In this document: piece after piece, positions 7,203 to 63,843 of the stretch
Layout: every line of letters begins with the position of its first letter
How positions within the stretch are numbered: the first letter of the stretch is position 1
DNA from: Chitinophaga sp. 180180018-3
GTDB lineage: Bacteria; Bacteroidota; Bacteroidia; Chitinophagales; Chitinophagaceae
NCBI RefSeq assembly: GCF_037893185.1
Contig: NZ_CP140772.1
Span: 7,122,001 to 7,186,000 of the forward strand
DNA length: 64,000 bases
Reading direction: 5' to 3'
The notes under the pieces: generated by a model
Databases searched by the model: none
Seen by the model: the letters and a program-made list of their open reading frames with translations, nothing else
What the model was told of the DNA's origin: nothing
Position numbers and translations under genes: made by a program

Positions 7203-8945
7203 ATGACGCTATCAGTGAAGTTCTTCTCCCAGGCTTTGATCGTACTTTGTATCCCCATTCTGGCCAGCAGTCAGGCTTCGCTCAGGCTCAGCCTGCCTTC
7301 CCGCGATCAGAATAATGTAAGTACAGCTAAGCAATTTATCGCAGGCCGTACCTGTGTTGGTTGCACTGTCAGGATCAATAACGATACAACGCATGTGTAC
7401 TCCACCGGTACTTTTGCCGCGAAATACGAGCTGCCTGTTGGCCGGAGTAACTTCGCCGTTACTACAACCTCACCTAACGGAGAAACATATACGAAAGATG
7501 TAGTATTCTACTACAACCCGCCACCAGCTCCGGTAGCCACTTCTGTTTTCCGCATAGATTTTATGGAGATAAGCCCAAGTGGGAACCTTCAGCTAAGCGA
7601 AGGAGATACCCTGCGCATCAAAATGAAAGGTTACCCAGGACAGGAAGCCAGCTGGTTCAACAATGTGCCGATCCGGGAAATGCCCTCCTCTCAAACAGGC
7701 GGTGTGCCGGGCTATTACAGCGGCATATATGTTATCAAAGCCAGCGATTCATTACTGAATGGTAAAATCATCGCCCGGCTTCGCCGCAGCAACGGTGAAA
7801 CAGCGGTGCAAGGCAGCACTTACCGTTACAGCGTCATGCGTAATGAAGTACCTTTCACCGGCCGTACCATCGATAATATGACCTATCTTACTTCCAGCCC
7901 ACATGGCGACCGCCTTGGCCCGGAAAAAATCGGATACCTGGATAAAGATGTACTGCTGCATATAGTAGGCCGTCAGGGAGATTATTATAAAGTGAGATTA
8001 TCGTCGCACAATACCGCTTTCATCCCCGAGCCGCTTGTAGATACAGAGATTCCGCAGGAACAGCTGCCCGTCAGCATTGCGGACGATGCCAGGATATGGG
8101 GCGATGAAAAATATGATTATATCTCTGTGGCGTTATCAGACAAGCTGCCTTACACTTCTACCCAATTGGTTGCTGCTAAAAAGATTATGGTGGATATCCA
8201 TGGTGTGTACACAGAAAAGAATCTCAGCAGCCAGTTACAAGGCACGAAAGAGATCACAGCTGTATCCTGGGGACAGCCCTATCCTGACGTTTGCCGCATG
8301 GTCATATCCCTTAAGCATGCTCCCTGGGGCTACCAGATCTACTATGAAAATAATCGTATAGTCGTGAAGGTGAAAAGGGTGCCGGAAAAACCCTCTTTGA
8401 AAAATCTGGTGATAGGCCTTGATCCCGGCCATGGAGGCAGTAATCCCGGGGCTACCGGCCTCACCGGCAATGTAGAAAAAAACATGACCCTGTTGATTTC
8501 CCTGCAGCTGAAAAATGCCCTGGAGCGAGAAGGCGCCACTGTTATAATGTCGCGCACTACGGAGAAGTTTGTGGCGAACGAAGACCGCCTTTCTTTCTTC
8601 AGAAAAACCAATCCCGATCTGCTGCTGAGTGTTCATATGAATTCCTCCGGCAATCCCGTAGATGTTTACGGAACTGCCACCTACTATAAACATCCATTCT
8701 GTGAGCCACTCTGTGCTGCTATTCACGAGCGTTTGCTACAAACAGGATTAAATGATTTTGGCAATAACCCCGACTTCAATTTCATCCTGAACAATCCCAC
8801 GGAATTCCCTGATGCACTGATAGAAACCTTATTTCTTAGCAATCCGGGCGACGAAGAAAAAATACTGAATCCATCGTTCCAGCGAGAGATCGTGAATGGA
8901 ATCGTCTCAGGGTTGAAAGATTACCTCGAAGAAATTAATAATTAA
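7203..8945 (+). CDS. Secreted N-acetylmuramoyl-L-alanine amidase (Amidase_3)
   Basis: A 580-residue cell-wall hydrolase that cuts the amide bond between N-acetylmuramic acid and the stem peptide. It has an N-terminal signal peptide (to about ASSQA, residue 25). A beta-rich region of about 370 residues follows and is probably for wall binding or localisation. The zinc amidase domain occupies about 400-580. Catalytic motifs are LDPGHGG (first zinc His), VEKNM (zinc Glu), SVHMNSS (second His, near 475) and ETLFLSN (catalytic Glu, near 540). Role in cell separation or wall turnover is inferred. The last codons and stop lie inside a long palindrome shared with the convergent peptidase gene. Confidence 0.93.
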   Translation: MTLSVKFFSQALIVLCIPILASSQASLRLSLPSRDQNNVSTAKQFIAGRTCVGCTVRINNDTTHVYSTGTFAAKYELPVGRSNFAVTTTSPNGETYTKDVVFYYNPPPAPVATSVFRIDFMEISPSGNLQLSEGDTLRIKMKGYPGQEASWFNNVPIREMPSSQTGGVPGYYSGIYVIKASDSLLNGKIIARLRRSNGETAVQGSTYRYSVMRNEVPFTGRTIDNMTYLTSSPHGDRLGPEKIGYLDKDVLLHIVGRQGDYYKVRLSSHNTAFIPEPLVDTEIPQEQLPVSIADDARIWGDEKYDYISVALSDKLPYTSTQLVAAKKIMVDIHGVYTEKNLSSQLQGTKEITAVSWGQPYPDVCRMVISLKHAPWGYQIYYENNRIVVKVKRVPEKPSLKNLVIGLDPGHGGSNPGATGLTGNVEKNMTLLISLQLKNALEREGATVIMSRTTEKFVANEDRLSFFRKTNPDLLLSVHMNSSGNPVDVYGTATYYKHPFCEPLCAAIHERLLQTGLNDFGNNPDFNFILNNPTEFPDALIETLFLSNPGDEEKILNPSFQREIVNGIVSGLKDYLEEINN

Positions 8946-9034
8946 TAATGAAGAAACAGCGGGAAGACCCTGGCGGATTATTATTATTAATTGCCAGGGT
9001 CTTCCCGCTGTTTCTTCATTATTAATTATTAATT
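8933..9034. repeat. Heptad-arm palindrome, copy 1
   Basis: Two perfectly complementary 42-base arms (8933-8974 and 8993-9034) flank an 18-base AT loop. Reading inward, the left arm divides into 7-base units (ATAATTA, ATAATGA, AGAAACA) and then a core GCGGGAAGACCCTGGC. The element lies between convergent genes and includes the last codons and stops of both; the amidase ends in ..INN-stop and the peptidase also ends in ..INN-stop, both encoded by the arms. It could serve as a bidirectional terminator. It belongs to the dispersed family described in the findings. Confidence 0.9.
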
Positions 9035-11226
9035 CTTCTCAAATAGCCAGCGAGTCTGGCAATAGCGTCTGCTGCTACCAAAATCTGCTCCTGGGCCTCT
9101 TTCCAACGGCGTTGTTCTATTGCCTCACGTACACCGGGAATTGTTTTTACACCGTAGCCGGTATAGAAGCCGGGGGCGTAAATGGTATGTTTGTACCAGG
9201 TACGTGCAGGGAGTCCCTGATCATTCAGCAGCTGTTGTTCCGCCTGATAAAGGGCTTTATTGGCGGCGCCGGTAAATTGTTTTCCGGCCAGCGCCTGGGT
9301 GACAGTGTCGAGGCCGGCTATGGCATTTTGTAATGGTGAGAAATCGAGGTAAGGTACCTCGGGCTTTTGCACTGGTGGCAACAGGTGTTTAGCGGTATCT
9401 GTAGCCAGCTGATATTTCCCTTCGCGCAACAGTTGGTTTTCAACGGCGGTAGATTCCCGTATAGTGGTAACCAGATCTGTCAGCTCCGTCACATAGCCGT
9501 TCACCGTTTCATAGAGTTTACGGAAATCAAAGGGGAGACTAACGGCACCGGCCATACGTAATACGGTGTGCCCGGCAGTTTGTGACAAGGCTACGCCATA
9601 ATTAAAGCCAGGATCTTTAAAACGCCGGTAGTCATCGTAGGAGTCGTAGATAGAATGGTATTCTCCGCCAGCATCTTCTCCCCCAAATCCCAGATCCAGG
9701 GAGGGTACTCCAAGGTGTTGAAGGAAGGAGGAATAATCCGATCCTGATCCCATGGCACCAATGGGCATTTCCTGTTTCGCCAGTTTCTCTCTGCGAAGCC
9801 GGGGAGTTGCTGCTCTCAATACTTCCTGTGCCTGTTTGCGCGCCAGGATGCTGACACCGGTCTGCGGATCTTTGATATCACGCGCTACTTCATTCACCAG
9901 GGTTTGCAGGGCATGAGATCCGCTGGCCCCGAGAAATCCACGACCGTTGCCGTCGGAGTTGATATACACCACTGCTTTTTCTTTCAGTTCAGCGGCATGA
10001 TCCTCCGCCCATTCTGTGGAGCCCAGCAAACCGGGCTCTTCTCCGTCCCATGCGCAGTACACCAGCGTGCGTCGTGGCTGATAGCCTTGTTTTCGCAATT
10101 CTCCGATAGCTTTAGCCTCTTCCAGCAGGGCCGCCAGTCCGCTGATAGGATCGGAAGCACCATTCACCCAGGCATCGTGGTGGTTGCCCCGGATCACCCA
10201 CTGATCGGGCTCCTCGCTTCCTTTGATCCTGGCGATAACGTCGTAGCAGGGCCGGATCTGCCAGTCGAACTGCGCTTTGAGATGAACTCTTGCCTGTCCT
10301 CCTCCGATATGATACGTAAATGGCAGTGCCCCGCGCCAGTCTTCCGGAGCAACCGGTCCCTCCAGGGCCTGCAGCAGTGGCGCAGCATCATGATAACTGA
10401 TCGGCAATACAGGTATTTTCAACAGGTTAGGAGCCTGCAGGCGTTCCAACCGTTTAGCCCCCGACGTGGCGCCAATGCCCGGCGTCAGCGGATCACCCGG
10501 ATAGATAACAATATCCATTACAGAACCTCGCTGTACACCGTATTCATTTTTGAATGCTCCTTTAGGATATACGTCTCCGTTATAATACCCATCATCTTTG
10601 GGATCGGAATAAATAATACATCCCACAGCTCCGTGTTCTTGAGCTACTTTGGGCTTGCTGCCACGCCAGGAACGGCCATACTTTGCGATGACGATCTTGT
10701 TTTTCACATTTACGCCGGTACGTTCGAGGTATTCATAATCTTCCGGCAGGCCGTAGTTTACATATACAAGCGATCCTTCTACGTCGCCGTCGGCGCTCCA
10801 GGCATTGTACGTAGGCAATTGCCCTTCCTGGCCGGAGGTAGCATCCTCTTTCAACGGAGGTTCTTTCAGCAGTGCCTTATAGGTAACGGGCCCTTTCAAC
10901 TCCACGATCCGTTCCTTTGGTGTCGGAAACAGTACCTGATAAGTAACTATCTCGGCATCCCAACCGTAACTTTTAAACCGCTGCAGGATATCTTCTGCTA
11001 CTGCTTTGCCTCCTGCGGAGCCCAGATGGTGCGGGCGGGCGGACAAATCCCTGATAGTTTCCCCGATATGGCTGCTGCTCAGCTGTTTATCGAACTGCTG
11101 CTCCAATTCAAGCTGACGGGCAGCAGCACTGCCAGCATAGCCGGTGAGTTGCTTTTCCTGGGCCTTTGTGACACCGCATATGCATAGGAACATAGCGATA
11201 ACCACGGTTCTTTTGGTTGTTGTCAT
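9022..11226 (-). CDS. Secreted M28 zinc peptidase, glutamate carboxypeptidase II-like
   Basis: About 734 residues with the three-part layout of glutamate carboxypeptidase II and transferrin-receptor-like proteins: a protease-associated domain inserted in an M28 peptidase domain, then a helical dimerisation domain. Zinc and catalytic motifs are all present: NHHDAWVNGASDP, AWDGEEPGLLGSTEW, YINSDGNG and GGEYHSIYDSYDDY. The start at 11226 gives a compact signal peptide (MTTTKRTVVIAMFLCICG, cleavage near KAQ); an ATG six codons upstream at 11244 is also possible. It probably removes C-terminal acidic residues or trims peptides in the periplasm or outside. A promoter-like AT-rich gap separates it from the divergent gene at 11409. 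Confidence 0.92.
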   Translation of the reverse strand: MTTTKRTVVIAMFLCICGVTKAQEKQLTGYAGSAAARQLELEQQFDKQLSSSHIGETIRDLSARPHHLGSAGGKAVAEDILQRFKSYGWDAEIVTYQVLFPTPKERIVELKGPVTYKALLKEPPLKEDATSGQEGQLPTYNAWSADGDVEGSLVYVNYGLPEDYEYLERTGVNVKNKIVIAKYGRSWRGSKPKVAQEHGAVGCIIYSDPKDDGYYNGDVYPKGAFKNEYGVQRGSVMDIVIYPGDPLTPGIGATSGAKRLERLQAPNLLKIPVLPISYHDAAPLLQALEGPVAPEDWRGALPFTYHIGGGQARVHLKAQFDWQIRPCYDVIARIKGSEEPDQWVIRGNHHDAWVNGASDPISGLAALLEEAKAIGELRKQGYQPRRTLVYCAWDGEEPGLLGSTEWAEDHAAELKEKAVVYINSDGNGRGFLGASGSHALQTLVNEVARDIKDPQTGVSILARKQAQEVLRAATPRLRREKLAKQEMPIGAMGSGSDYSSFLQHLGVPSLDLGFGGEDAGGEYHSIYDSYDDYRRFKDPGFNYGVALSQTAGHTVLRMAGAVSLPFDFRKLYETVNGYVTELTDLVTTIRESTAVENQLLREGKYQLATDTAKHLLPPVQKPEVPYLDFSPLQNAIAGLDTVTQALAGKQFTGAANKALYQAEQQLLNDQGLPARTWYKHTIYAPGFYTGYGVKTIPGVREAIEQRRWKEAQEQILVAADAIARLAGYLRRINN

Positions 11227-11408
11227 AAATGATGAAGATCTCATGTGATGGTGGGTAACACAAGATAATCAATAACTTCCGGTTATGTGCCATAAATATA
11301 GGTTATAGCACAATAGTCTACTTATTAAGTAGATTAATCTATATTTGTAAATCCTTTCATAGCTTTATTGCGTGAATTGAGGTCATAAACATTATAAACT
11401 GCAGTTAT

Positions 11409-11753
11409 ATGGGTAACGCGATCCAGGAGTTCAACGACTACCGGGCTAAAATGAATGAGGTAATACTGGGTAAACAGAACAAGGTGATTAACCGGCTGTT
11501 CAATCTTGATACAAATACCTATGCAGAAGGAGCATTAAGCACCAAAACCAAGGAAATGCTGGGTCTGGTGGCATCGATGGTACTTCGCTGCGATGACTGT
11601 ATAAAATATCACCTGGGCAAGGCACATGAACAGGGAGTGACTACTGAAGAGATGTATGAAATTTTCGCAGTAGCTAATATTGTGGGTGGCACCATCGTTA
11701 TCCCGCATACCCGGAGGGCAGCGGAATACTGGGAGGAATTACAGGCCCAATGA
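11409..11753 (+). CDS. Carboxymuconolactone decarboxylase / AhpD-family protein
   Basis: A 114-residue all-helical protein of the AhpD-like fold. The redox motif CDDC lies at residues 61-64, followed by a helix with His68 (CIKYHLGKA), the pattern of AhpD and related peroxidase-reducing proteins. TKTKEMLGLVASMVLRC matches the family signature. Function as a thiol-disulfide or peroxide-related reductase is inferred; true lactone decarboxylases usually lack the CxxC. It is 63 bases upstream of the ferredoxin oxidoreductase beta subunit on the same strand. The pair may share a transcript, which would place this protein near an oxygen-sensitive iron-sulfur enzyme. Confidence 0.88.
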   Translation: MGNAIQEFNDYRAKMNEVILGKQNKVINRLFNLDTNTYAEGALSTKTKEMLGLVASMVLRCDDCIKYHLGKAHEQGVTTEEMYEIFAVANIVGGTIVIPHTRRAAEYWEELQAQ

Positions 11754-11816
11754 GGGGATAATTACACCGATCTGTCGTAACTTTACGGACTCAATAATAA
11801 ATTTTAATTCAAACTA

Positions 11817-12854
11817 ATGTCAACAGCAACTATAGCTCCGCAGGCAGCCTTAACGGCAAAAGACTTTGCAACTGACCAGGAAGTACGCTGGTGCCCTGGC
11901 TGCGGTGACTACTCTATACTAAAGCAGGTACAAACCATTATGCCTGGACTGGGGATTCCCCGTGAAAACATTGTGATCGTTTCTGGTATCGGGTGTTCTT
12001 CCCGTTTCCCGTATTATATGAACACTTACGGCATGCACTCGATCCATGGGCGTGCTACTGCTATCGCATCTGGTTTGAAGGCGACCCGTCCGGAACTGAG
12101 TGTGTGGATCGTGACAGGTGATGGCGATGGCTTGTCTATCGGTGGTAACCACACCATTCACCTGCTGCGTCGTAACTTCGACGTGAATGTAATGCTCTTC
12201 AACAACCAGATATATGGTTTGACAAAAGGACAATACTCTCCCACATCCGAAGAGAATAAAGTGACCAAGTCTACTCCTATGGGCAGTATCGACCATCCGT
12301 TCAATCCGATGGCACTGGCGCTGGGTGCAGACGCGACCTTTATTGCCCGCAGCATGGACCGGGATCCGAAACACCTGCAGGAGATGCTGAAACGCAGCCA
12401 TGCCCATAAAGGCGCTTCCTTCCTGGAAATATACCAGAACTGTAACATCTTTAATGATGGCGCATTTGAGGCCTTTACTGAAAAAGGAACCAAGGCGGAC
12501 GAAACCCTTTTTGTAGAACAGGGCAAACCACTGGTATTCGGTGCCCAGAAAAATAAAGGTATCCGCCTCGACGGATTAAAACCTGTAGCAGTGGAGCTGG
12601 GCGGCGATTATAGCGAAAGCGATCTCTGGATCCACGACGAAAACGACTTCTACAAAGCTCAGTTGCTCACCCGTATGTTCGACGATACCCGTATAGAAGG
12701 CCACTTACCCCGTCCGTTCGGTGTATTCTACGAAGTCTTCCGCCCTACCTACGAAGATATCATGGCAGCCCAGCTTTCAGACGCTATCAGCAAAAGAGGC
12801 CCGGGTGACCTGGATAAGCTTTTGGCGGGTAATGAAACGTGGACCATCAGGTAG
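11817..12854 (+). CDS. 2-oxoacid:ferredoxin oxidoreductase, beta subunit
   Basis: A 345-residue thiamine-diphosphate subunit of a 2-oxoglutarate- or 2-oxoacid:ferredoxin oxidoreductase, which decarboxylates a 2-oxoacid to its acyl-CoA and reduces ferredoxin. Cluster-binding Cys are seen in WCPGCGDY (near 26 and 29), GIGCSSR (near 54) and NCNIF (near 205). The thiamine-diphosphate/magnesium motif runs from GDGDG to NNQIYGLTKGQYSPTS. Length and motifs match KorB rather than pyruvate-specific PorB, but substrate cannot be proven. The alpha (or fused gamma-alpha) subunit normally sits immediately upstream; here that place is taken by the AhpD-like gene. The stop codon TAG is the first base triplet of a long palindrome. 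Confidence 0.93.
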   Translation: MSTATIAPQAALTAKDFATDQEVRWCPGCGDYSILKQVQTIMPGLGIPRENIVIVSGIGCSSRFPYYMNTYGMHSIHGRATAIASGLKATRPELSVWIVTGDGDGLSIGGNHTIHLLRRNFDVNVMLFNNQIYGLTKGQYSPTSEENKVTKSTPMGSIDHPFNPMALALGADATFIARSMDRDPKHLQEMLKRSHAHKGASFLEIYQNCNIFNDGAFEAFTEKGTKADETLFVEQGKPLVFGAQKNKGIRLDGLKPVAVELGGDYSESDLWIHDENDFYKAQLLTRMFDDTRIEGHLPRPFGVFYEVFRPTYEDIMAAQLSDAISKRGPGDLDKLLAGNETWTIR

Positions 12855-12970
12855 AATTAGGAATAGAGAAAGAAGAATTAAGAAATAGCGCGAAGACCTT
12901 AGCAAAATTATCATCATTGCTAAGGTCTTCGCGCTATTTCTTAATTCTTCTTTCTCTATTCCTAATTCTA
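12852..12970. repeat. Heptad-arm palindrome, copy 2
   Basis: Perfect 54-base arms (12852-12905 and 12917-12970) flank an 11-base loop. The left arm starts at the stop codon of the oxidoreductase gene and the right arm ends one base before the LysE stop, so the element fills the gap between the convergent genes. After TAG-phase the arm reads as five 7-base units (AGAATTA, GGAATAG, AGAAAGA, AGAATTA, AGAAATA) and a core GCGCGAAGACCTTAGCAA. It would form a very stable hairpin in either transcript. Confidence 0.92.
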
Positions 12971-12971
12971 T

Positions 12972-13610
12972 CTAGTGTCCTAAACTTCCCAGTTCAAACA
13001 ACACCTTATACAGCAGTACCACCCCAAAAATGATCATGCTGACACCGGCTATGCGGTTAAGCCATTCTACGTTGGTGAGTGTAAGCTTGTGACGGATCTT
13101 ATCAGCAACAAACACCTTGAGGATGTCGGCAGATAAAACCAGCGACAGGCAGATAGTATACATGATAAACCGGTGGCTTACGGGAGTAGCACTATTGGCT
13201 ACGCATACGCCCAGCCAGAAGATGATAACCCCGGGGTTCAGGGTATTCATCAGAAAACCAGCCAGCCAGATTTTCAGATAGTCATGGGTGCGGAACATTT
13301 CCGGTTTTTCGTCGCCGGTGCTGATCTTCACCTTTTTGAAAAGCAGCCCGTAAATACCCATTGCAATCAGCAGGATACCGCCTCCTACGCCGATAGACCG
13401 CTTGTATTCTTCCAGCCCGCTGATGAAAGACGTTGCCAGGTTACCGGTTAATACGAACATAATATCGCTGAAAGACACACCCAGTGCGAAACTGATCCCT
13501 GCCTTAAAACCGTTATTGATGCTATATTTTATTATGGCGAATATTACCGGGCCTACCGATAAGGAAAGAAATAATCCAAGTCCCAGTCCCGCAACAATTG
13601 ATGCTATCAT
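12972..13610 (-). CDS. LysE-family amino-acid exporter
   Basis: A 212-residue polytopic membrane protein with about six helices. The start, GLGLGLFLSLSVGPVIFAII, with its Gly-rich first helix and the conserved SxGP, is the signature of LysE/RhtB translocators that export amino acids or similar small solutes. Further family features are FKAGISFALGVSFSD and MNTLNPGVIIFWLG (NP in helix 4). The substrate is unknown. It is transcribed away from the GH3-type gene with only 30 bases between that gene's end and this start, so the two are probably co-transcribed (GH3 first). Confidence 0.88.
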   Translation of the reverse strand: MIASIVAGLGLGLFLSLSVGPVIFAIIKYSINNGFKAGISFALGVSFSDIMFVLTGNLATSFISGLEEYKRSIGVGGGILLIAMGIYGLLFKKVKISTGDEKPEMFRTHDYLKIWLAGFLMNTLNPGVIIFWLGVCVANSATPVSHRFIMYTICLSLVLSADILKVFVADKIRHKLTLTNVEWLNRIAGVSMIIFGVVLLYKVLFELGSLGH

Positions 13611-13639
13611 GCTTATATTTTCCGTGTCACAACTGCAAC

Positions 13640-15178
13640 TTAACTTTTAACAGTCTTTCCTGCAAGAAATTTCTCCCAATCCTTCAGCTTCTCGCCCTTC
13701 ATGACACGGGGAAACTTATTCATGGCGCCTTCCTTGCCTTTACAACGGAGATAATCGATAAATACATCGTTAGGGAGTATTTCTACGAACACTTCCTTGA
13801 GTGCAGCAGAGCGCTCTACTGCATAATCATCGTTCACTTCGGCTAAAGTCTGGTCTATGATTTCTCTTACCTTCTCTGCATCCACTCCCTGAGAATCTGT
13901 TCCAATATACCAGCGATGGGCAAAGAGGTTCTGATAAGGGAATCCGGCAACAGTAAACTCTCTGATAGTAATGCCGAGTTTCCTCTGTACATTATCGATG
14001 GCTTTGTTCATGTTGTCGATACTCATGTGCTCCCCGCACAGGCTGAGGAACTGTTTGGTACGGCCAACAATAACAATTTCATGTTCTTTCACAGAGGTGA
14101 ATTTCACCACATCACCGATCAGATAACGCCAGGCTCCTGCACAGGTACTTAGCATCACCGCGTATTCCACATCTTCCACCACCTCATGTATCATGTACGA
14201 CTTAGGATTGGGTTTTACCTCACCCTCGCCATCAAAGTTCTCTTCATTGAAAGGAATGAATTCGAAGAAAATGCCGGCATTCAATACCAGTTTGATCCCT
14301 CTTGTTCCCGGACGGGCCTGGAAGCCGAAGGAGCCTTCTGAGGCCATATACGTTTCGATGAACGCAATGGGCTTTCCGAGCAGTTTCTGGAAGCTTTCAC
14401 GGTAAGGCTCGAACGACACCCCTCCGTGAATATATACGGCCAGATTAGGCCAGATTTCGTGGATATCCTTTACATTGTGATATTTGATAATCTCTTCCAG
14501 CACAATCTGTACCCAGGCAGGTACACCGCATACGGTACCTACGTCCCAGTCTTTCGCCTTACGGACGATCAGCTTGATACGCTGTTCCCAATTGGGTTTA
14601 CGGGATATTTTCCCACCCGGCTTGTAAAAACGGCGGAACCATCTGGGAATATTCTTGGCCTGGATGCCACTCATATCTCCCTCATAATAATCTCCTTTCT
14701 CAAACAATGAAGTGGTTCCCCCCAGCATAAGAATACCCTTTTCAAAGGAACGGGGCGGAATATTGAAGTTTGCCATGGAGTACAGCTGCTTCACGCCTAC
14801 CTTTTTCACTGTTTTTAACATCGCCCTGGTTACCGGAATATGTTTGCTGGCAGATTCTGATGTACCGGAACTCAGCGCAAAGTACTTGATCTTTTCAGGC
14901 CAGCTGACATTTGCTTCTCCCTCCAGGCAACGGAACCACCATTCCTTGTGCATTTTGGAGTAATTATGCACTGGTATCCTTTCGCGGTACTGCCCCATGA
15001 AATTGGGGCTGTCCAGGATTTCCTGAAACCCGTAGTGGTTACCAAACTCTGTATCCTTGGCCTTCTCCAGCAACCGGTGCAGTACCTGTAACTGATATTG
15101 GCGAGGCGTGCCTAACTTAAACGTGAACTTCTTCCTGATGCGCAGTGACCTGGAAATAAGATTACCTATAATGGCCAT
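13640..15178 (-). CDS. GH3-type acyl-adenylating enzyme
   Basis: A 512-residue member of the GH3 family, named after plant auxin-amido synthetases, which activate a carboxylic acid with ATP and transfer it to an amino acid. The ATP-binding loop is visible as LSSGTSESASKHIPVT near residue 105, and a later YMASEGSFGFQ and TCAGAWRYLIGDVVKFT match the adenylate-binding core. N- and C-terminal domains are both present. Bacterial members are common in Bacteroidota, but the substrate is not known. The gene lies upstream of the LysE exporter on the same strand, which could mean that the product is exported, but that is speculation. Confidence 0.9.
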   Translation of the reverse strand: MAIIGNLISRSLRIRKKFTFKLGTPRQYQLQVLHRLLEKAKDTEFGNHYGFQEILDSPNFMGQYRERIPVHNYSKMHKEWWFRCLEGEANVSWPEKIKYFALSSGTSESASKHIPVTRAMLKTVKKVGVKQLYSMANFNIPPRSFEKGILMLGGTTSLFEKGDYYEGDMSGIQAKNIPRWFRRFYKPGGKISRKPNWEQRIKLIVRKAKDWDVGTVCGVPAWVQIVLEEIIKYHNVKDIHEIWPNLAVYIHGGVSFEPYRESFQKLLGKPIAFIETYMASEGSFGFQARPGTRGIKLVLNAGIFFEFIPFNEENFDGEGEVKPNPKSYMIHEVVEDVEYAVMLSTCAGAWRYLIGDVVKFTSVKEHEIVIVGRTKQFLSLCGEHMSIDNMNKAIDNVQRKLGITIREFTVAGFPYQNLFAHRWYIGTDSQGVDAEKVREIIDQTLAEVNDDYAVERSAALKEVFVEILPNDVFIDYLRCKGKEGAMNKFPRVMKGEKLKDWEKFLAGKTVKS

Positions 15179-15346
15179 TAACTTTCTCTCTCTTTAATTG
15201 AACTACAAAAATAAGCGGAATCCCGAATATAAGTTAACTGATTAGTAAGAATTACAGATTAGGAGTTATCAATAAGTATTATATACATACTCAAAATTAT
15301 AAATGTAAAGGTAAGAAATCGTAAATTATAATTCCCTATTCGTAAT

Positions 15347-15354
15347 TACCTTTG
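15347..15354 (+). promoter_or_regulatory. Bacteroidota -7 element TACCTTTG
   Basis: TACCTTTG matches the TAnnTTTG pattern of the primary sigma factor of Bacteroidota. It ends four bases before the start codon of the inositol monophosphatase gene, so the transcript would be leaderless or nearly so. No clear TTG was found at the expected upstream distance. Confidence 0.5.
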
Positions 15355-15358
15355 CGGC

Positions 15359-16129
15359 ATGCTAAAAACAACTTTACTCAAAGCTACTGAAGCCAGCGGA
15401 AAAATACTGCAACAATATTTCAACGGCCCTTTCGAGGTCAGCAGTAAAAGTACAGTAAACGACCTGGTGACGGAGGTGGATAAAAAATCCGAATCAGCTA
15501 TTATTGCTACCATCCGGGAAACTTATCCAGATCACTTCATTCTGAGCGAGGAAGTAGGTGAGATAAAGACCAGCTCTTCAATAAAGTGGATCATCGACCC
15601 GATCGATGGTACCGTGAACTATGCCAATGGTATTCCGATCTGTTGTGTATCGATTGGGGTGGAGAAAGATGGAGAAATGATACTGGGTGCAGTATATAAC
15701 CCATTTATGAACGAGCTTTTCCTGGCCGAAAAAGGACAGGGAGCTACGCTGAATGGCAAGCCCATACAGATTTCCAGCCAGGCAAACGTCAACCGTTCCT
15801 GTCTGGTGACCGGTTTTCCTTATCAATGGCAGGATCTCCCCAACAACCCTCTCGTGGTTTTCGAAAGGGTTATTACACAGGGCATTCCGGTACGCCGCCT
15901 GGGCTCTGCTGCCATAGACCTCTGCTGGGTAGCCTGTGGCCGGTTCGATGGTTTCTATGAGCACCATCTTCAACCCTGGGATGCCGCTGCCGGCTTCCTG
16001 ATCGTTGAAGAAGCCGGTGGAAAAGTAACCGACTTTTCCGGCAAACGCTACTCTCCCTATCAAAAAGAAGTACTGGCAACGAACGGACATATCCACGGCG
16101 GATTACAAGCACTTGTTAACGGAAAATAA
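15359..16129 (+). CDS. Inositol monophosphatase family phosphatase
   Basis: A 256-residue magnesium-dependent sugar-phosphate phosphatase. Metal-binding motifs are present: Glu in SEEVGE (near 66), WIIDPIDGTVNYANG (near 79-93) and QPWDAAAGFLIVEEAGG (near 203-219). The family includes inositol-1-phosphatase, CysQ-like 3'-phosphoadenosine phosphatase and fructose-bisphosphatase-like enzymes; the fit to SuhB/IMPase is best, but substrate is inferred. It begins a short operon with thiL, whose start lies only two bases after this stop. Confidence 0.9.
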   Translation: MLKTTLLKATEASGKILQQYFNGPFEVSSKSTVNDLVTEVDKKSESAIIATIRETYPDHFILSEEVGEIKTSSSIKWIIDPIDGTVNYANGIPICCVSIGVEKDGEMILGAVYNPFMNELFLAEKGQGATLNGKPIQISSQANVNRSCLVTGFPYQWQDLPNNPLVVFERVITQGIPVRRLGSAAIDLCWVACGRFDGFYEHHLQPWDAAAGFLIVEEAGGKVTDFSGKRYSPYQKEVLATNGHIHGGLQALVNGK

Positions 16130-16131
16130 AG

Positions 16132-17166
16132 ATGGAACAGGAAAGAACTGAAATACAGGACCTGGGGGAATTTGGTCTGATCGACTTCCTCACGAGGAAC
16201 ATTGAAATACAAAATGCAAGCACCGTACTGGGTGTGGGAGATGATGCCGCCGTGATAGATCACTTCGGCAAACAAACCGTGATCAGTACCGACATGCTGG
16301 TAGAAGGCATTCATTTCGATCTGATGTATATGCCGCTCAAACACCTGGGCTATAAATCGGTAGTGGTAAACCTTTCCGATATCTACGCCATGAATGCTAC
16401 GCCTACGCAGATTATTATCAGCATTGCCTTCTCCAATCGTTTCTCTGTGGAAGCATTGAACGAATTTTACGAAGGGGTGTATGCCGCCTGTGAAAAATAT
16501 GGCGTAGACCTCGTGGGAGGCGATACCAGCAATTCTCAGAAAGGATTTATCATCAGCATTACCGCTATCGGAGAAGTTGCGCCAAATAAATTCGTAAAAC
16601 GGTCTACAGCGCAGAAAGGCGATCTGCTTTGCGTTTCAGGCGATCTGGGCGCTGCCTACCTGGGCCTTACCCTGTTGGAGCGGGAAAAAAAGATCTTCCT
16701 GGAAAGTCCGGATGTAAAGCCTGATCTCGAAGATCAGACCTATGTCATCGGGCGGCAGCTGAAACCGGAAGCCCGGAAAGATATCATCGAATTCCTGCAG
16801 GAACAGGACATTGTGCCTACTTCCATGATGGATGTCAGCGATGGCCTCAGCTCAGAAATACTGCATATTGCCAAACAAAGCAATCTGGGCGTAGTGCTCT
16901 ACGAAGAGAAGATCCCCATTGCCCAGGAAAGCCGGGAACTTGCCATGAAGTTCGGTCTGGACCCCACCGCCTGTGCATTAAGCGGTGGAGAAGACTACGA
17001 GCTGCTCTTTACCATGAAACAAGCGGACCATGATAAAATAGTGCTGAATGAACAAATCAGCGTTATTGGCTACATGACCGACATCTCTGAAGGCGCGCAT
17101 ATCCTGACCAAGGGGGGAAATAAGTTTAAGCTGGTAGCGCAGGGCTGGAACGCGTTCCAGCAGTAA
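16132..17166 (+). CDS. thiL: Thiamine-monophosphate kinase
   Basis: A 344-residue ThiL, which phosphorylates thiamine monophosphate to the cofactor thiamine diphosphate with ATP. Recognisable motifs are VLGVGDDAAVID near 40 (nucleotide/magnesium binding), STDMLVEGIHFDL near 60, GGDTSNSQ near 130 and SGGEDYELLFT near 283. Length and domain order match the PurM-like fold of ThiL. The start ATG is two bases after the stop of the inositol-phosphatase gene, so the two are co-transcribed. A long palindrome lies directly after it. Confidence 0.95.
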   Translation: MEQERTEIQDLGEFGLIDFLTRNIEIQNASTVLGVGDDAAVIDHFGKQTVISTDMLVEGIHFDLMYMPLKHLGYKSVVVNLSDIYAMNATPTQIIISIAFSNRFSVEALNEFYEGVYAACEKYGVDLVGGDTSNSQKGFIISITAIGEVAPNKFVKRSTAQKGDLLCVSGDLGAAYLGLTLLEREKKIFLESPDVKPDLEDQTYVIGRQLKPEARKDIIEFLQEQDIVPTSMMDVSDGLSSEILHIAKQSNLGVVLYEEKIPIAQESRELAMKFGLDPTACALSGGEDYELLFTMKQADHDKIVLNEQISVIGYMTDISEGAHILTKGGNKFKLVAQGWNAFQQ

Positions 17167-17180
17167 ATTCAACATAGGGA

Positions 17181-17279
17181 GAATTAGGAATTACGAAATA
17201 GCTCGAAGACCTACCTTAGTGAATGACGATATTATTATCATTCGCTAAGGTCTTCGAGCTATTTCGTAATTCCTAATTC
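17181..17279. repeat. Heptad-arm palindrome, copy 3
   Basis: The left arm begins AGAATTA-GGAATTA-CGAAATA and then GCTCGAAGACC; the right arm is its complement, with TCATTCGCTAAGGTCTTCGAGC. The arms are near-perfect: the left has an additional 4-base TACC, apparently a local duplication of ACCT, and one other difference. The element separates convergent thiL and the family 39 glycosyltransferase, and the right arm encodes the last codons of the latter (..ITN-stop). Confidence 0.88.
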
Positions 17280-18952: not shown

Positions 18953-18991
18953 GCGGCTATTCAGAATGATTAATCCGCGAATATACTGTTA

Positions 18992-31886: not shown

Positions 31887-31909
31887 TATGTTGTTTGCTT
31901 CAAATGCAA

Positions 31910-31949
31910 AACCCAAAAACCAGTGAAATGTTCGGCTGGTATTTGGGTT
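31910..31949 (-). terminator. Hairpin between murA and gmk
   Basis: On the minus strand AACCCAAATACCAG and CTGGTTTTTGGGTT form a 14-base stem with one mismatch around a 12-base loop. The T-run that follows is short, so it may be a weak terminator or attenuator after murA. Confidence 0.55.
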
Positions 31950-34075: not shown

Positions 34076-34187
34076 AAAATTACGAATTACGAATTACGAA
34101 ATAACGGGGAGATAACAGCGAAGTTGATCTTCGTGTTTACTATCTCCCCGTTATTTCGTAATTCGTAATTCCTAATTCGTAATTTTA
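34076..34187. repeat. Heptad-arm palindrome, copy 4, between divergent genes
   Basis: The left arm reads AAAATTA, CGAATTA, CGAATTA, CGAAATA and the core ACGGGGAGATA. The right arm is the complement but has one additional unit (GGAATTA). The inner part can pair further as ACAGCGAAG with CTTCGTGTTT. It lies between the divergent DUF4290 and alpha/beta hydrolase genes, ending four bases before the start of the latter, so it cannot be a terminator shared by two convergent genes. The GAAGACC core of the other copies is replaced by GGAGATA. Confidence 0.85.
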
Positions 34188-43330: not shown

Positions 43331-43383
43331 AATAACAAGAAGACCTTAGCGATTTTAATATCTGCTAAGGTCTTCTTGTTATT
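43331..43383. repeat. Heptad-arm palindrome, copy 5
   Basis: Inner arms AATAACAAGAAGACCTTAGC and its complement are perfect over 20 bases (43331-43350, 43364-43383) around a 13-base loop. Outside this, the arms are only partly matched (ACTATTA-GTAATAA on the left; ATTAGTATTTAAC on the complement of the right). It separates the convergent beta-barrel and small lipoprotein genes. Confidence 0.85.
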
Positions 43384-45768: not shown

Positions 45769-45798
45769 GTGGGGGTATATACTATGAAGTTTTCCACT

Positions 45799-45806
45799 TA
45801 TTTTTG
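45799..45806 (+). promoter_or_regulatory. -7 element TATTTTTG before asnS
   Basis: TATTTTTG matches the Bacteroidota -7 consensus and lies 22 bases before the asnS start codon. A clear upstream TTG is not seen at the expected spacing. Confidence 0.45.
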
Positions 45807-45828
45807 CAATCCTAAAAATTTAATTCAT

Positions 45829-47270: not shown

Positions 47271-47357
47271 AGCTATTAGCCATTAGTTATAAAGAGAAAG
47301 ACCAGAGCGAATAATATTTGCTCTGGTCTTTCTCTTTATAACTAATGGCTAATAGCT
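47271..47357. repeat. Heptad-arm palindrome, copy 6
   Basis: Perfect 38-base arms (47271-47308 and 47320-47357) surround an 11-base loop. Units are GCTATTA, GCCATTA, GTTATAA, then the core AGAGAAAGACCAGAGC. It lies just after asnS and before exbD, which are on the same strand, so it can be an asnS terminator, but its arms share the design of the other copies. Confidence 0.9.
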
Positions 47358-54432: not shown

Positions 54433-54445
54433 TGCTGTTTTATAA

Positions 54446-54489
54446 CTGCATAAGAAAGCCCCTGCCAATGCAGGGGCTTTCTTATGCAG
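54446..54489. terminator. Second hairpin with perfect 20-base arms
   Basis: CTGCATAAGAAAGCCCCTGC (54446-54465) and its exact complement (54470-54489) surround a 4-base loop CAAT. It can act in both directions and lies just after the first hairpin. Confidence 0.75.
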
Positions 54490-54834
54490 TTTCTGTTAAC
54501 AATTATACAAACCCGGCGTTAACCGTGTAAATGCTGAACTAACAGGGCTGTTTTAATGGCCCGCAGGGATATCGAGCAAAGTTCGTTCCATGGCTGCATC
54601 AAAGCTGCAGCCTGTCGGAGAAAACATTCGACATATGACGTCTGTAACGGTTAAGCAGAAAGACGAGCTCCTGCATGATTTTTTCCTGCACATAAACAGG
54701 ATGTAGAATATTCCTCCAATCTGTAGAATATGTTGCGCAGAGAGGACCCTGCACAAAAAACTTATTGCCGGCATTCCTGGTCCTGTATAAAAATTGTACC
54801 TTGAAATGCTTTCTCAACATCCGGTATAGCACAG
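54490..54834. other. Intergenic region before the CHASE3 kinase
   Basis: About 345 bases with no supported gene on either strand. It should contain the promoter of the kinase operon. I see no clear promoter boxes. Confidence 0.4.
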
Positions 54835-56317: not shown

Positions 56318-57748
56318 ATGAGCGATCGCCCGATACATATTTTGATGATAGATGATGATGAAGACGATTTCTTTCTCGTAACAGAGTTACTTCATGATAT
56401 TTCCCCGGGACAATATGTATTGGAATGGGCGCCGACTTATCAGAAAGGGCTTGAAGCCATCGAACGCCGGGCGCATGATGTATTCCTGGTCGATTACCGT
56501 CTGGGGCCTCATACAGGGATCGATATCCTGCACAGGATACAACAGATGCCGGAACAGTTGCCGGTAATCATGTTAACTGGTAAAGGGGATTATAACATCG
56601 ACCGGGAAGCGATGCTGGCCGGCGCCTATGACTATCTTGTAAAAGGAGAAATCACGGCTGATTTGCTGGAAAGATCCATCCGGTATGCCCTGGATGAATA
56701 TCACCACCGACGTACGATTGAAGAAGGAGAAAAGAAATACTACGGCATCTTCGAGAAGGCGCAGGATCTGATTATACTGGCCGATTGTGACCGGCATATC
56801 ATTGACGCCAATCCCGCTGCACTTCGTATACTGGCCTATGACAGGGAAGCAATACTAAAATTGCATCTCCGCGATCTCTTTGCCTCTGCAGAACAGGGCG
56901 AGCATTTTCTGGCTGATATCAGCAACACTGCCAATGCCCACTCACGGGAATACGAATTCAAAACATCCGATAACCATAAGCGGACGGTATTAATCAATGC
57001 AGTGACGCTGGATGAAGTGGCGCAGATATTCCTTTGTGTGATCCAGGACATCACCGATAAAAAACGGGAGGAGCAGGAAAAGCAACACCAGGAAAAATTC
57101 GTCATCACAGGGCGTATTGCCAGGGTGGTAGCACACGAAGTAAGAAACCCGCTTACCAATATATTGCTGGCGGTCAGCCAGTTTAAGGAAGAAGGCACCG
57201 ACAATGATGAGGTAACACTTTATACAGATATCATCGAAAGAAACTGCACCCGCATCAATCAGCTTATCACAGAGCTGTTGCACAGCACTCGTATGATAGA
57301 GCTGCATATAGAACCTGTGGGCATCAATGCGGTTACTGAGAAAGCGTTACAGCTGGCGGAAGACAGGTTGAAACTGAATGAAATCAGCGTAGAGAAAACG
57401 TTGGTATCTCCCGACATTACTATCCAGGCAGATGAAGAAAAACTCGTCATCGCTCTCCTCAACATCATTATCAACGCCATAGAAGCCATGGTACCCGGCA
57501 AAGGCGTTCTAACCATTACGACTATACGGAATCAGGAAAGAGTAAAGCTATTGATTGGCGACAACGGACATGGTATTCCGGAAGATAAGCTCGCCAGGCT
57601 GTTTGATCCGTTTTACACCAGCAAATCCAGAGGTACGGGCCTCGGGCTTACCAGTACGCAGAATATTCTGCTGAATCATAAAGGGACGATCCATGTTGAT
57701 AGTGAGGCGGGTAAGGGAACAGTTTTTACAATAGCCTTTAGTCTTTAG
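56318..57748 (+). CDS. Receiver-PAS-histidine kinase
   Basis: A 476-residue soluble protein with an N-terminal receiver (IDDDEDDFFLV; Asp59 in LVDYRLGPHTG), a PAS domain (about 145-245, IFEKAQDLIILADCDRHIID), and a kinase core with His273 in VAHEVRNPLTN, N box NIIINAIEAM, and GTGLGLTSTQ. The reverse order of a hybrid kinase suggests it takes phosphate from an upstream kinase (likely the CHASE3 kinase) and may pass it on. It has no membrane helices. It lies between that kinase and the convergent sigma-54 activator. Confidence 0.92.
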   Translation: MSDRPIHILMIDDDEDDFFLVTELLHDISPGQYVLEWAPTYQKGLEAIERRAHDVFLVDYRLGPHTGIDILHRIQQMPEQLPVIMLTGKGDYNIDREAMLAGAYDYLVKGEITADLLERSIRYALDEYHHRRTIEEGEKKYYGIFEKAQDLIILADCDRHIIDANPAALRILAYDREAILKLHLRDLFASAEQGEHFLADISNTANAHSREYEFKTSDNHKRTVLINAVTLDEVAQIFLCVIQDITDKKREEQEKQHQEKFVITGRIARVVAHEVRNPLTNILLAVSQFKEEGTDNDEVTLYTDIIERNCTRINQLITELLHSTRMIELHIEPVGINAVTEKALQLAEDRLKLNEISVEKTLVSPDITIQADEEKLVIALLNIIINAIEAMVPGKGVLTITTIRNQERVKLLIGDNGHGIPEDKLARLFDPFYTSKSRGTGLGLTSTQNILLNHKGTIHVDSEAGKGTVFTIAFSL

Positions 57749-57786
57749 TGAAATGCAACGTATAATCTCCGCTGCATTTCACTAAA
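57744..57786. terminator. Bidirectional hairpin between convergent kinase and regulator genes
   Basis: TTTAGTGAAATGCA (57744-57757) and TGCATTTCACTAAA (57773-57786) are exact complements around a 15-base loop. It overlaps the stop of the kinase gene and lies 13 bases from the end of the regulator gene. Confidence 0.75.
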
Positions 57787-57798
57787 AATTAAAAGCTA

Positions 57799-59232
57799 TC
57801 AGTAATTTATATTGAGCAGTCGCAGCTTATTATATAATGTTTTCCGGTCTATATTCAGCACCTGTGCTGCTTTTGTTTTGTTATACTTCACTTCTTTCAG
57901 CACATTAATGATTTTATTGTATTCTGCCTGGAGGGCAACTGTTTTCAGGTCGTTGTCGTTGGAGAGGATGGCCAGTTCACCGGAAACGGGAGCTTCTTCG
58001 GATGATTGTGCGAATGCTTCTTTCATTTCCAGCGGCAGGGCCGTCATGGTGATTTCCTCCATCTCCGGTGTGAGCAGGCAGGCTCTCCGTATCACATTTT
58101 TCAGTTCACGGATATTGCCGGGCCAGTTATATTGTTGAAAACAATCCCATACTTCGGCGGATATTTTACCACAGGTTTTATCCAGTTCTCTTTCCACCTG
58201 GTTTACGAAAGCTGCCGTGAACAGGGGCAGATCTTCCCGGCGTTCCCGCAGTGGCGGAATGTAGATGGTAAATTCATTCAGGCGGTGGAAAAGATCTTCT
58301 CTGAATTTGCCTCTCTGTACAGATTCAGATAGTTTCTCGTTGGAAGCTACGATGATACGTACATCAATAGGTATTTCCTTGAGGCTTCCCACGCGGCGTA
58401 TTAATTTCTCCTGCAATACGCGAAGCATGGCCACCTGGATATCGTAGGAGAGGTTAGATATTTCATCGAGGAAGAGTGTACCGCCCTGGGCCTGTTCAAA
58501 TGCGCCTATTTTGGTACTGATAGCTCCCGTAAAAGAACCTTTTTCATGGCCAAACAGTTCACTGGCAGCCAGTTCCTTGGAAAGGCTACCACAGTCGAGC
58601 GCTACAAACGGCTGTTGATTTCTCTTACTGTGATGATGAATAAGATGTGCTACGGATTCCTTACCAGTTCCGGTTTCACCGAAAATGATCACACTGTAAT
58701 CTGTAGGAGCTACTAATTTGATCTGACGGAATAGTTCACGTGCCCCTTCGCTTTCTCCATACACATATTTATCATTCTTATCGCTCTGACTACGTGTCAG
58801 CAGGGTTTCCCGCACCTCCGGCTCTGAGCCCGATTCTACAGGCCGTACCGCCTGTCGTTCCTGTTCGGCATCCTTATGAGCAAATGCTTTATGTACCAGA
58901 TTGAGTATTTCATCGGGGTACAAGGGTTTGGAAAGATAGTCGTAGGCCCCGTTCTTCACCATTTCCACAGCTACCCTTACATCGGTATATCCAGTGATAA
59001 TAATTACTATGGTAGCAGGATTGATCTGACGGATATCCTGCAACAGTTGGGCGCCATCTGTATCTTTTAACCGGTAATCGCACAGTACCAGATCATATGT
59101 TTTTTCTCTCAGCATCTTCAGTGCTGCAGCACCGGTCATAGTACTGTCCACATCAAATCCATGCTTCCCGAGAAATTTACTCAGGAGCGTACAGATATTT
59201 ATTTCATCGTCTATGATCAAAATATTTTTCAT
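57799..59232 (-). CDS. NtrC-family sigma-54 activator with GSFTGA loop
   Basis: A 477-residue regulator with receiver (Asp52 in [13 protein letters not shown]), AAA+ ATPase (Walker [15 protein letters not shown]; Walker [13 protein letters not shown]) and a Fis-type C-terminal DNA-binding part ([20 protein letters not shown]). The sigma-54 contact loop is [14 protein letters not shown], with Ser in place of the usual first Ala, seen in some activators. It probably answers one of the two kinases upstream on the other strand, but specificity is not proven. About 70 bases separate it from the receiver-only protein. Confidence 0.93.
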
Positions 59233-59665: not shown

Positions 59666-59672
59666 GGTCTTA

Positions 59673-62671: not shown

Positions 62672-62706
62672 CGGTGAACTTAGTCTGTTCCGACCGAAGT
62701 TCACCG
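62672..62706. terminator. Hairpin between the 62356 gene and gpsA
   Basis: CGGTGAACTT (62672-62681) and AAGTTCACCG (62697-62706) are exact complements around a 15-base loop. It lies between convergent genes, 38 bases after the small gene. There is no T-run. Confidence 0.55.
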
Positions 62707-62721
62707 AATATTCCATTTCTA

Positions 62722-63744: not shown

Positions 63745-63768
63745 ATTGCAAATTTTTATGCAATATAG

Positions 63769-63843
63769 AGAATTAGGAAATAGCGAGAAGACCTTAGCGA
63801 ATAATTATCCATCGCTAAGGTCTTCTCGCTATTTCCTAATTCT
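63769..63843. repeat. Heptad-arm palindrome, copy 7
   Basis: Perfect 32-base arms (63769-63800 and 63812-63843) surround an 11-base loop. Units AGAATTA and GGAAATA precede the core GCGAGAAGACCTTAGCGA. It lies between two minus-strand genes, starting 4 bases from the adaptor stop and ending 25 bases before the gpsA start. Confidence 0.92.

What the first reader, a model, noticed from the sequence alone, without database searches (positions are those of the whole stretch)
8933..63843. A family of intergenic palindromes with 7-base units in the arms and a GAAGACC core
Seven copies (8933-9034, 12852-12970, 17181-17279, 34076-34187, 43331-43383, 47271-47357, 63769-63843) share a design. Outer arms are built from 7-base units (NNAATTA, GGAATTA, CGAAATA, NNNATTA) in one phase, followed by about 11 bases ending in GAAGACC (AAAGACC in copy 6; GGAGATA in copy 4) and usually TTAGC. 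Arms are perfect or nearly so over 20-54 bases, far longer than a terminator needs. The unit number varies from 2 to 5. Copies 2, 3 and 7 share most units (AGAATTA, GGAAATA/CGAAATA, GCNCGAAGACC). Positions are convergent, co-directional and divergent. I interpret this as a dispersed repeat family whose arms grow by slippage and are kept complementary, possibly doubling as terminators. A REP-type element mobilised by a RAYT-like transposase is one option. I know of no name for this family, but cannot search.
Basis: partly seen in the sequence, partly recalled or inferred. Interest (0 to 1): 0.8.

Follow-up and report, generated by a model that had tools for sequence, protein, structure and literature searches.

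The report
Mobile palindromes at bacterial gene ends
In Chitinophaga bacteria, near-perfect mirror-image DNA elements of about 120 bases, built of 7-base units, have spread to many gene ends, where their two halves change in step; what spreads them is not known.

Summary
In detail: all seven palindromes are present, and four shuffled windows gave none. They belong to a dispersed family in a Chitinophaga genome, about 260 copies by extrapolation. The full-length consensus is a 116-base palindrome: five 7-base units of GAATNNN type, then a GCGAAGACC-like core. Units keep fixed positions relative to the core and neighbours are not unusually alike, so local slippage is not supported. In C. solisilvae, 20 copies (chosen by length) sit between almost entirely unrelated flanks with no target duplication seen: copying between loci. 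In 49 aligned copies, 339 cells changed on both arms and 36 did not match. Orthologous palindromes show mirrored changes and, at three loci, inverted interiors, as expected from hairpin-templated template switching. The palindromes reach to the stop codons at gene 3' ends, where relatives carry short hairpins or palindromes of other unit types. A RAYT is unlikely as mobiliser: none was found in the own genome or C. solisilvae, and two that were inspected elsewhere lie beside a different REP. Best reading: mobile palindromic terminator modules with unknown mobiliser. Termination is inferred, not shown. Closest known kinds: ERIC and REP elements.

The parts
8933..9034 (.). Copy 1: palindrome, arms 42 nt, 100% complementary; core GCGGGAAGACCCTGGC; between convergent ORFs 7203-8945 (+) and 9022-11244 (-); both stop codons lie inside the arms
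12852..12970 (.). Copy 2: full-length palindrome, arms 54 nt, core GCGCGAAGACCTTAGC; its first bases TAG are the stop codon of ORF 11817-12854
   Evidence: model match 8.3e-28 at G000:C1:7134854-7134968
17181..17279 (.). Copy 3: palindrome, arms 32 nt, core GCTCGAAGACC; right arm reads one unit longer; supplies the stop codon of ORF 17273-18952 (-)
34076..34187 (.). Copy 4: palindrome with GGGGAGATA core; right arm holds one 7-base unit more than the left; divergent gap
43331..43383 (.). Copy 5: short palindrome, arms 20 nt, GAAGACCTTAGC core, TTAG-type outer sequence
47271..47357 (.). Copy 6: palindrome, arms 43 nt with one mismatch, units CTATTAG/CCATTAG, core AGAAAGACCAGAGC; starts 2 bp after the stop codon of ORF 45769-47268
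63769..63843 (.). Copy 7: palindrome, arms 32 nt, two units, core GCGAGAAGACCTTAGCGA; the sequence to the right reads as the end of a minus-strand gene
57731..57799 (.). Additional decayed palindrome with TTTAGTC/TTTAGTG units and AAATGCAACG core; overlaps the stop codons of convergent ORFs 56318-57748 and 57799-59232
54444..54491 (.). For contrast: ordinary short hairpin without units (AACTGCATAAGAAAGCCCCTGC and complement)
7135..7179 (.). For contrast: short hairpin GAAAAAATGCAGCG / CGCTGCATTTTTTC, core of the second class without unit arms

Best explanation
These are copies of a non-autonomous, dispersed palindromic element, about 115-125 bp at full length, that sits at gene 3' ends. Each full arm is five 7-base units (GAATNNN) followed by a GC-richer core (GCGAAGACC and variants); the whole can fold into one long hairpin on either strand. 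Shown by sequence: copies share one consensus in register, are scattered at many loci, are near-identical between unrelated flanks in one relative, and end at or inside the stop codons of neighbouring genes. Shown by comparison: relatives have ordinary short hairpins or other palindromes at the same places, substitutions appear in both arms together, and the interior can be inverted. Inferred: (1) the hairpins are bidirectional terminators, and the element also supplies stop codons; (2) arms are kept matched by replication template switching within the hairpin, which copies one arm from the other; (3) copies spread by DNA copying with an unknown mobiliser that is probably not a RAYT; (4) different lineages run their own unit vocabularies (periods 7, 8, 9, perhaps 11), so gene-end hairpins turn over fast.
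For: Dispersal: 53 places of GAAGACC-N2-32-GGTCTTC in the own genome against 1 for the reversed pattern; 13 arms of 24+ nt with lag-7 match 0.4 or more in 400 kb of about evenly spaced stretches, about 264 per genome by extrapolation; the covariance model gives 150 matches, its scoring cap, at 81 distinct places, all E under 3e-13. Size: 45 of 78 binned lengths are 110-130 bp. Young copies: 20 copies of C. solisilvae (G054), chosen for a length of 123-124 in the list, have AATTACG...CGTAATT ends, flanks that match between loci in one pair only, and the loop in both orientations; BLAST of one copy with 600-bp flanks gives 97-99% at four other G054 loci, over the element alone. Gene ends: 60 convergent, 47 co-directional, 4 divergent of 111 placed, against 129/376/122 for all gaps of 40 bp or more; 125 of 167 neighbouring stop codons lie within 10 bp of the edge or inside the arm; in 38 convergent gaps the median DNA left outside the palindrome is 0 bp. 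Arms: 339 both-side changes, 13 one-side, 23 unpaired of 2251 cells, 0 of 500 shuffles as high; arms found singly by profile pair off in 77 cases with 2.3% mismatch within copies against 19% between copies. Orthologous hairpins: 92 both-arm changes, 14 one-arm, 8.2 expected if independent. Interiors inverted: G018 against G019/G066/G034 (by eye; one search scores 0.49 reversed and 0.09 direct against G034), G055 against G059, G042 against G029 (by eye).
Against: No transcript data, so termination is untested; a simple terminator scan of 8000-19000 reported none of the three palindromes there, although its loop limit of 8 nt excludes loops of 11-35. No transposase or target duplication was found, so the spreading step has no agent; only PF01797 was looked for. 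Palindromes were mostly found as palindromes, which favours matched arms; the single-arm search lessens this bias, but of its 18 unpaired arms 4 lie in no palindrome. Shared mirrored changes among copies may be inherited through copying and are not independent events; the 56 orthologous pairs overlap in species and both members had to be palindromes. In the quasi-palindromes of G042/G029/G038 one-arm changes outnumber mirrored ones, 6 to 2 over three comparisons. The automatic rule scored 6 alike loops as same orientation and 1 as inverted; the other two inversions were judged by eye. The C. solisilvae copies were chosen by length, so their uniform size is partly my choice.
Confidence: 0.62

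Rival explanations
1. REP-type element moved by a RAYT (TnpA-REP, Y1 transposase).
For: Dispersed intergenic palindromes; no target duplication seen, as in REPs (recalled); Y1_Tnp is present in 17 of 75 genus genomes, including 7 of the 10 with 13 or more GAAGACC pairs and 8 of the 22 with 10 or more model matches.
Against: Own genome and G054, the two with most GAAGACC pairs (53 and 68), have 0 Y1_Tnp hits; in G044 and G045 the Y1_Tnp gene lies beside or between copies of a different REP-like sequence, with no GAAGACC in 3.3 kb (2 of 17 loci read); elements are about 120 bp and symmetric.
Confidence: 0.07
2. Ordinary terminators whose arms grew at each locus by 7-base slippage, with the second arm copied from the first.
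For: 7-base phase; two window copies differ by one whole unit between arms; relatives have short hairpins at the same sites.
Against: Adjacent units are not alike (0.054 against 0.079), units are in register with the core across loci, ordered strings of 3 units are shared 39 times against means of 4.5 and 6.6; a preferred full length; near-identical copies at unrelated loci in G054. Units three apart are more alike (0.185), so an old duplication of 21 bp remains possible.
Confidence: 0.08
3. Dispersed copies, but arms kept complementary by selection on RNA pairing (stepwise compensatory change), not by DNA template switching.
For: Position at gene ends fits RNA hairpins; covariation is very strong.
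Against: One-side (G-U) states are 13 cells against 339 both-side, while stepwise change should leave many; loss of one pair in a 50-bp stem should hardly matter (inference); inverted interiors have no obvious RNA-level cause.
Confidence: 0.14
4. Natural-transformation uptake sequences arranged as inverted pairs at terminators, as in Neisseria.
For: Lineage-specific short core in inverted pairs at gene ends.
Against: The core is not enriched outside palindromes: GCGAAGACC 1 found, 1.2 expected; GAAGACC 36 found, 34.5 expected in a masked sample of 464 kb.
Confidence: 0.02
5. Three-frame translational stop modules: units exist to place stop codons in every frame.
For: Arms often supply the stop codon (34 of 76 convergent gene ends).
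Against: All three frames closed in 17 of 79 arms against 18.3 in shuffled arms; units with a stop 0.739 against 0.731 by chance; other lineages use a period of 9.
Confidence: 0.03

Closest known systems
ERIC / IRU elements of enterobacteria (recalled; no sequence comparison made)
   Same: About 127 bp, palindromic, dispersed, intergenic, non-autonomous, mobiliser unknown
   Different: ERIC is an imperfect palindrome with conserved arms; here arms are near-perfect, built of 7-base units, diverge between copies while matching within a copy, and fill the gap up to stop codons
REP / REPIN elements with RAYT (PMC3733652, PMC2817692, PMC3116915: search listing and start of abstract only)
   Same: Dispersed extragenic palindromes, possible terminators, no target duplication seen
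   Different: REPs are 20-40 bp (abstract of PMC3733652); no Y1 transposase here in the own genome or C. solisilvae, and in two relatives it goes with another palindrome
Bidirectional intrinsic terminators at convergent genes (PMC7566282: search listing only)
   Same: Same place; GC-richer stem between A-rich and T-rich arms
   Different: Arms of 35-58 nt in many copies, far beyond need; sequence shared between loci
Heptanucleotide repeats: TAACTGA repeats of Beggiatoaceae, Cyanobacteria and five Bacteroidetes (PMC4679880: passages read)
   Same: 7-base units, mostly intergenic, stop codons in the units
   Different: Those are direct repeats (169 sets and one indirect in one genome); here the arrays are arms of palindromes with a core, and identical neighbours are not favoured
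Template-switch mutations that create and maintain hairpins (PMC8794818: passages; PMC8604942: abstract and outline)
   Same: Multi-base mirrored changes and loop inversion are the published marks of the process
   Different: Published for RNA genes and yeast coding genes; here it would act on hundreds of dispersed gene-end palindromes

Membership tests
REP/RAYT | RAYT (Y1 transposase) gene in the genome | tested here: not met
   0 PF01797 hits in own genome and in G054, G027, G034, G037; present in 8 of the 22 genomes rich in matches
REP/RAYT | RAYT gene accompanied by the same palindrome | tested here: not met
   G044 and G045 loci carry CCCAGGGCT-AGCCCTGGG, no GAAGACC; 2 of 17 loci read
REP/RAYT | 20-40 bp unit | tested here: not met
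   45 of 78 binned lengths are 110-130 bp
MITE | Target-site duplication | tested here: not met
   own genome: equal 4-mers at 2 of 78, 0.43 expected; equal 6-mers at 0 of 78; none seen by eye in the 19 G054 rows
MITE | Terminal inverted repeats shared with an autonomous parent | not tested
   no parent element was looked for beyond PF01797
MITE | Defined ends at many unrelated loci | tested here: met
   G054 copies, chosen by length, and BLAST ends at four other loci
ERIC-like dispersed intergenic palindrome | Long palindrome, many copies, intergenic, no coding | tested here: met
   1 element mostly inside an ORF, 111 placed
ERIC-like dispersed intergenic palindrome | Sequence homology to ERIC | not tested
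   no comparison made
Intrinsic terminator | GC-rich stem followed by T-run at a gene 3' end | tested here: inconclusive
   gene-end position met; consensus reads TCTNTTTCTTAATTC after the core; simple scan did not list them
Intrinsic terminator | Transcripts end there | not testable with these tools
   needs 3'-end mapping
Template-switch maintained hairpin | Mirrored changes in orthologous stems | tested here: met
   92 both-arm, 14 one-arm, 8.2 expected; the reverse in the G042/G029/G038 quasi-palindromes, 2 against 6
Template-switch maintained hairpin | Loop inversion between relatives | tested here: met
   three loci, two of them by eye; 6 alike loops not inverted
DNA uptake sequence | Motif over-represented outside the palindromes | tested here: not met
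Rfam RNA family | Match above gathering score | tested here: not met
   0 matches in the window and in 4 loci with elements

The most novel reading that the evidence does not exclude
Self-spreading terminators: a palindrome that needs no transposase of its own but moves by replication template switching or by single-stranded hairpin DNA, overwrites whatever lies between two stop codons, and is kept perfect by copying one arm from the other. Each Chitinophaga lineage then carries its own competing vocabulary of such gene-end modules, which replace one another as species diverge.
Probability: 0.25. Interest if true: 0.87.

Novelty: new variant of a known kind. Interest (0 to 1): 0.68.

Why it matters
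If right, the 3' ends of genes in much of a genus are rewritten by dispersed palindromes within the time that flanking genes diverge by a few per cent, and terminators behave as mobile modules. The within-copy identity of arms with high between-copy divergence, together with inverted interiors, makes the question whether stems evolve by compensatory selection or by template switching directly testable in a culturable bacterium. The missing mobiliser would be a new one, or a known one in an unknown role.

Tried and rejected
Rejected after tests: RAYT mobilisation; local slippage; three-frame stop function; uptake sequence; known Rfam family; target duplications. Tried and inconclusive: loss of the hairpin nuclease SbcCD as the permissive step. 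SbcD (TIGR00619) has no hit in the own genome and is above cut-off in 2 of 22 genomes with 10 or more model matches against 21 of 53 others, but 19 of the 22 are among the 25 genomes that align best with the window region (no tree was built), G048 and G065 have SbcD and many matches, and a palindrome of score 42 occurs with SbcD present in Chitinophaga sp. CF118. So the loss is not required. Literature: the listings (titles, starts of abstracts) of nine searches showed no paper on these palindromes in Chitinophaga; subscription journals are mostly not held. Limits: gene calls were longest-ORF guesses; at the copy-4 site that caller took a probably spurious ORF and called the gap co-directional. 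The own-genome sample of 1.26 Mb is the window, 40 stretches chosen around pattern hits and 20 about evenly spaced ones, so all counts but the density estimate come from an enriched sample. The unit phase was set by best match to GAAT, which favours the first four positions.
Full report
What was checked. All seven palindromes are present at the given coordinates. A hairpin scan scoring +1 per pair and -3 per mismatch finds 9 palindromes of score 15 or more in the window; 4 dinucleotide-preserving shuffles give 0. The window is bases 7,122,001-7,186,000 of a single 8,131,986-base contig.

Size of the family. The pattern GAAGACC-N2-32-GGTCTTC occurs at 53 places in the own genome against 1 for the reversed pattern. 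I took 40 stretches around these places and 20 about evenly spaced 20-kb stretches. With the window this is 1.26 Mb and holds 112 palindromes of score 19 or more. The evenly spaced part, 400 kb, holds 13 with arms of 24 nt or more and a lag-7 match of 0.4 or more, so about 264 per genome by extrapolation. A covariance model built from 49 copies gives 150 matches, which is the scoring cap of that search (4306 candidates), at 81 distinct places, all with E below 3e-13.

Anatomy. The consensus of 49 copies with arms of 42-60 nt is a 116-base palindrome: GAATTAA GAATANA GAATGAA GAATTAA GAAANAG AGCGAAGACC TTAGCGAATAATA, then the complement. The best lag is 7 in 85 of 103 arms, 12 of 103 after shuffling. 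79 of the 103 arms are of GAATNNN type; in their 303 units the first three positions are nearly fixed (94-98%), the fourth is T in 77%, and the last three vary (the phase was chosen by best match to GAAT). The unit next to the core is mostly GAAATAG, GAAATAA or GAAACAG, the next GAATTAA, then GAATGAA/GAAAGAA/GAATATA, then GAATAGA/GAATATA and others, then GAATTAA and others. Neighbouring units are identical in 0.054 of 224 cases (0.079 expected), units three apart in 0.185 of 81. Three consecutive units are shared between loci 39 times; 4.5 and 6.6 are the means of two kinds of shuffle. Arm ends lie 37-40 nt from the core in 41 of 78 copies, and 45 of 78 binned lengths are 110-130 bp. So this is one element with a preferred full length and shortened copies, not a set of locally grown arrays. 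A second class in the same genome has TTTAGTC or CTATTAG-type units and an AAATGCAGCGGAGAT-like or AGAAAGACC core.

Arms change together. On the 49-copy alignment 36 of 47 pairs have changes on both sides; 339 cells changed on both sides, 13 on one side, 23 are unpaired, of 2251. Shuffles reach a mean of 77 both-side cells, never the observed value, and sliding the partner column gives 18-53. Because copies were found as palindromes, I repeated this with a profile of one arm only: 172 arm hits, of which 77 pairs face each other and 18 hits are single; of the 18, 12 still lie in a palindrome of score 18 or more, 2 score 15 and 4 have none. In the 77 pairs the arms differ at 79 of 3478 positions (2.3%), arms of different copies at 19%, and 67 of 77 left arms match their own partner best. 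One single arm, L029:5266-5316, is a half element in the gap between two minus-strand ORFs.

Place. Of 111 placed palindromes 60 are between convergent, 47 between co-directional and 4 between divergent ORFs; all gaps of 40 bp or more are 129, 376 and 122. The distance from palindrome edge to the neighbouring stop codon has a median of 2 bp; 125 of 167 are 10 bp or less, and 59 of the 167 stop codons end inside the arm. In 38 convergent gaps with GAATNNN palindromes the gap median is 107 bp, the palindrome median 114 bp and the left-over median 0 bp. At window genes the stop codon is close to the homologous place in the eight relatives compared and is often made by the palindrome itself, for example ATC-AGG-TAG-AATTAGG here and CAA-TAG-CTTTTAGC in G034 and G037. 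ORFs were called by length, so single cases can be wrong; the copy-4 gap was miscalled.

Relatives. The region aligns in 75 of 75 genus genomes. Of the 30 loci fetched, 27 hold at least one hairpin of score 13 or more and 3 (L083, L091, L092) none. Palindrome scores reach 82 in G034 and 106 in G054. In the clade G042/G029/G044/G038/G045, with 88-93% identity in the region, G042 has a GAATTA-unit palindrome at two sites where G029 and the other three have short hairpins of another sequence; at the first of them it reaches both stop codons. At another gene end both G042 and G045 have it while G029, G044, G038 and G011 do not, so at least two changes happened there.

Mirrored changes and inversions between species. 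In 56 pairs of orthologous hairpins of one class, 92 positions changed on both arms, 14 on one, 1088 on none; 8.2 are expected if arms were independent. The pairs are not independent and both members were required to be palindromes. In the G042/G029/G038 quasi-palindromes it is the other way round: 2 both-arm, 6 one-arm over three comparisons. Interiors are inverted at three loci: G018 against G019, G066 and G034 (by eye; one search gives 0.49 reversed and 0.09 direct against G034, just under my threshold of 0.5), G055 against G059, and G042 against G029, where the hairpin with its AT-rich flanks is turned round between outer CGCAAAG-type arms (by eye). The automatic rule counted 6 loops in the same orientation and 1 inverted. 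Arm homogenisation and spacer inversion are the described results of template switching between inverted repeats (PMC8604942, abstract; PMC8794818, passages).

Movement. I fetched 20 of its copies, chosen for a length of 123-124 from the capped list: sharp ends AATTACG...CGTAATT, mostly 121 bp between them, the same loop in both orientations (5 one way, 6 the other, 9 not classed), and flanks that match between loci in one pair only, L289 and L300 (the edge table lacks L300). BLAST of one copy with flanks gives 97-99% at four other G054 loci, over the element alone, and 78-86% at G000 copies. In three copies (L294, L297, L300) the two arms carry units in different order, as if arms of two subfamilies had met. 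One copy (L288) sits at the apex of an older palindrome with ATTTNNNN-like units. No target duplication is visible in the own genome or, by eye, in G054.

Mobiliser. PF01797 gives 0 hits in the own genome and hits in 17 of 75 genus genomes, none in G000, G054, G027, G034, G037, G018, G019, G066, G048 or G011, but in 8 of the 22 genomes rich in model matches. In G044 and G045, the two loci read, the gene lies beside or between copies of a different REP-like sequence. No other candidate was tested. SbcCD loss is neither required nor excluded as a help.

Spread of the family. Outside the genus 4 of 118 genomes of the order have matches, two of them 9 or 10 (a few were read).

Verdict. The element behaves like a mobile palindromic gene-end module; its arms evolve in concert. 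Dispersal is well shown, arm copying by template switching is likely, termination is plausible and untested, and the agent of movement is unknown.

Noticed in passing
L302 (G044) 2014-2278 and L303 (G045) 1297-2107: A Y1 transposase gene beside (G044) or between (G045) copies of CCCAGGGCT-AGCCCTGGG: an apparent REP/RAYT pair of its own in Chitinophaga.
   Followed up: partly
G042 site 15635 and G029, G038: Nested palindromes: outer arms of CGCAAAG-type units enclose an AT-rich stretch and an inner short hairpin; the inside is inverted between G042 and G029.
   Followed up: partly
L252, L224: Palindromes with 11-base periodicity (TAAACAGGTAG in Chitinophaga sp. CF118; another in C. oryziterrae), in genomes that have SbcD.
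   Followed up: no
G042 11259 and 93177, L305, L306: Palindromes whose inner core reads like a terminator turned inside out (GAGGGCTCTTTTAT then ATAAAAGAGCCCTC).
   Followed up: no
between window ORFs 31317-31916 and 31973-33286, at orthologous sites in relatives: A hairpin CAAAACCCAAA...TTTGGGTTTTG conserved in sequence at this gap in G042, G029, G044, G038, G045, G055, G059 and similar in G019, unlike the fast-changing gene-end palindromes; perhaps a leader structure.
   Followed up: no
L029:5266-5316: A single arm of the element without its partner, in the gap between two minus-strand ORFs: a half element.
   Followed up: partly
75 Chitinophaga genomes: SbcD is patchy in the genus: above cut-off in 23 of 75 genomes.
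   Followed up: partly
G054 L288: A GAATTACG-type palindrome at the apex of another palindrome with 8-base units, giving a joint palindrome of score 112.
   Followed up: no
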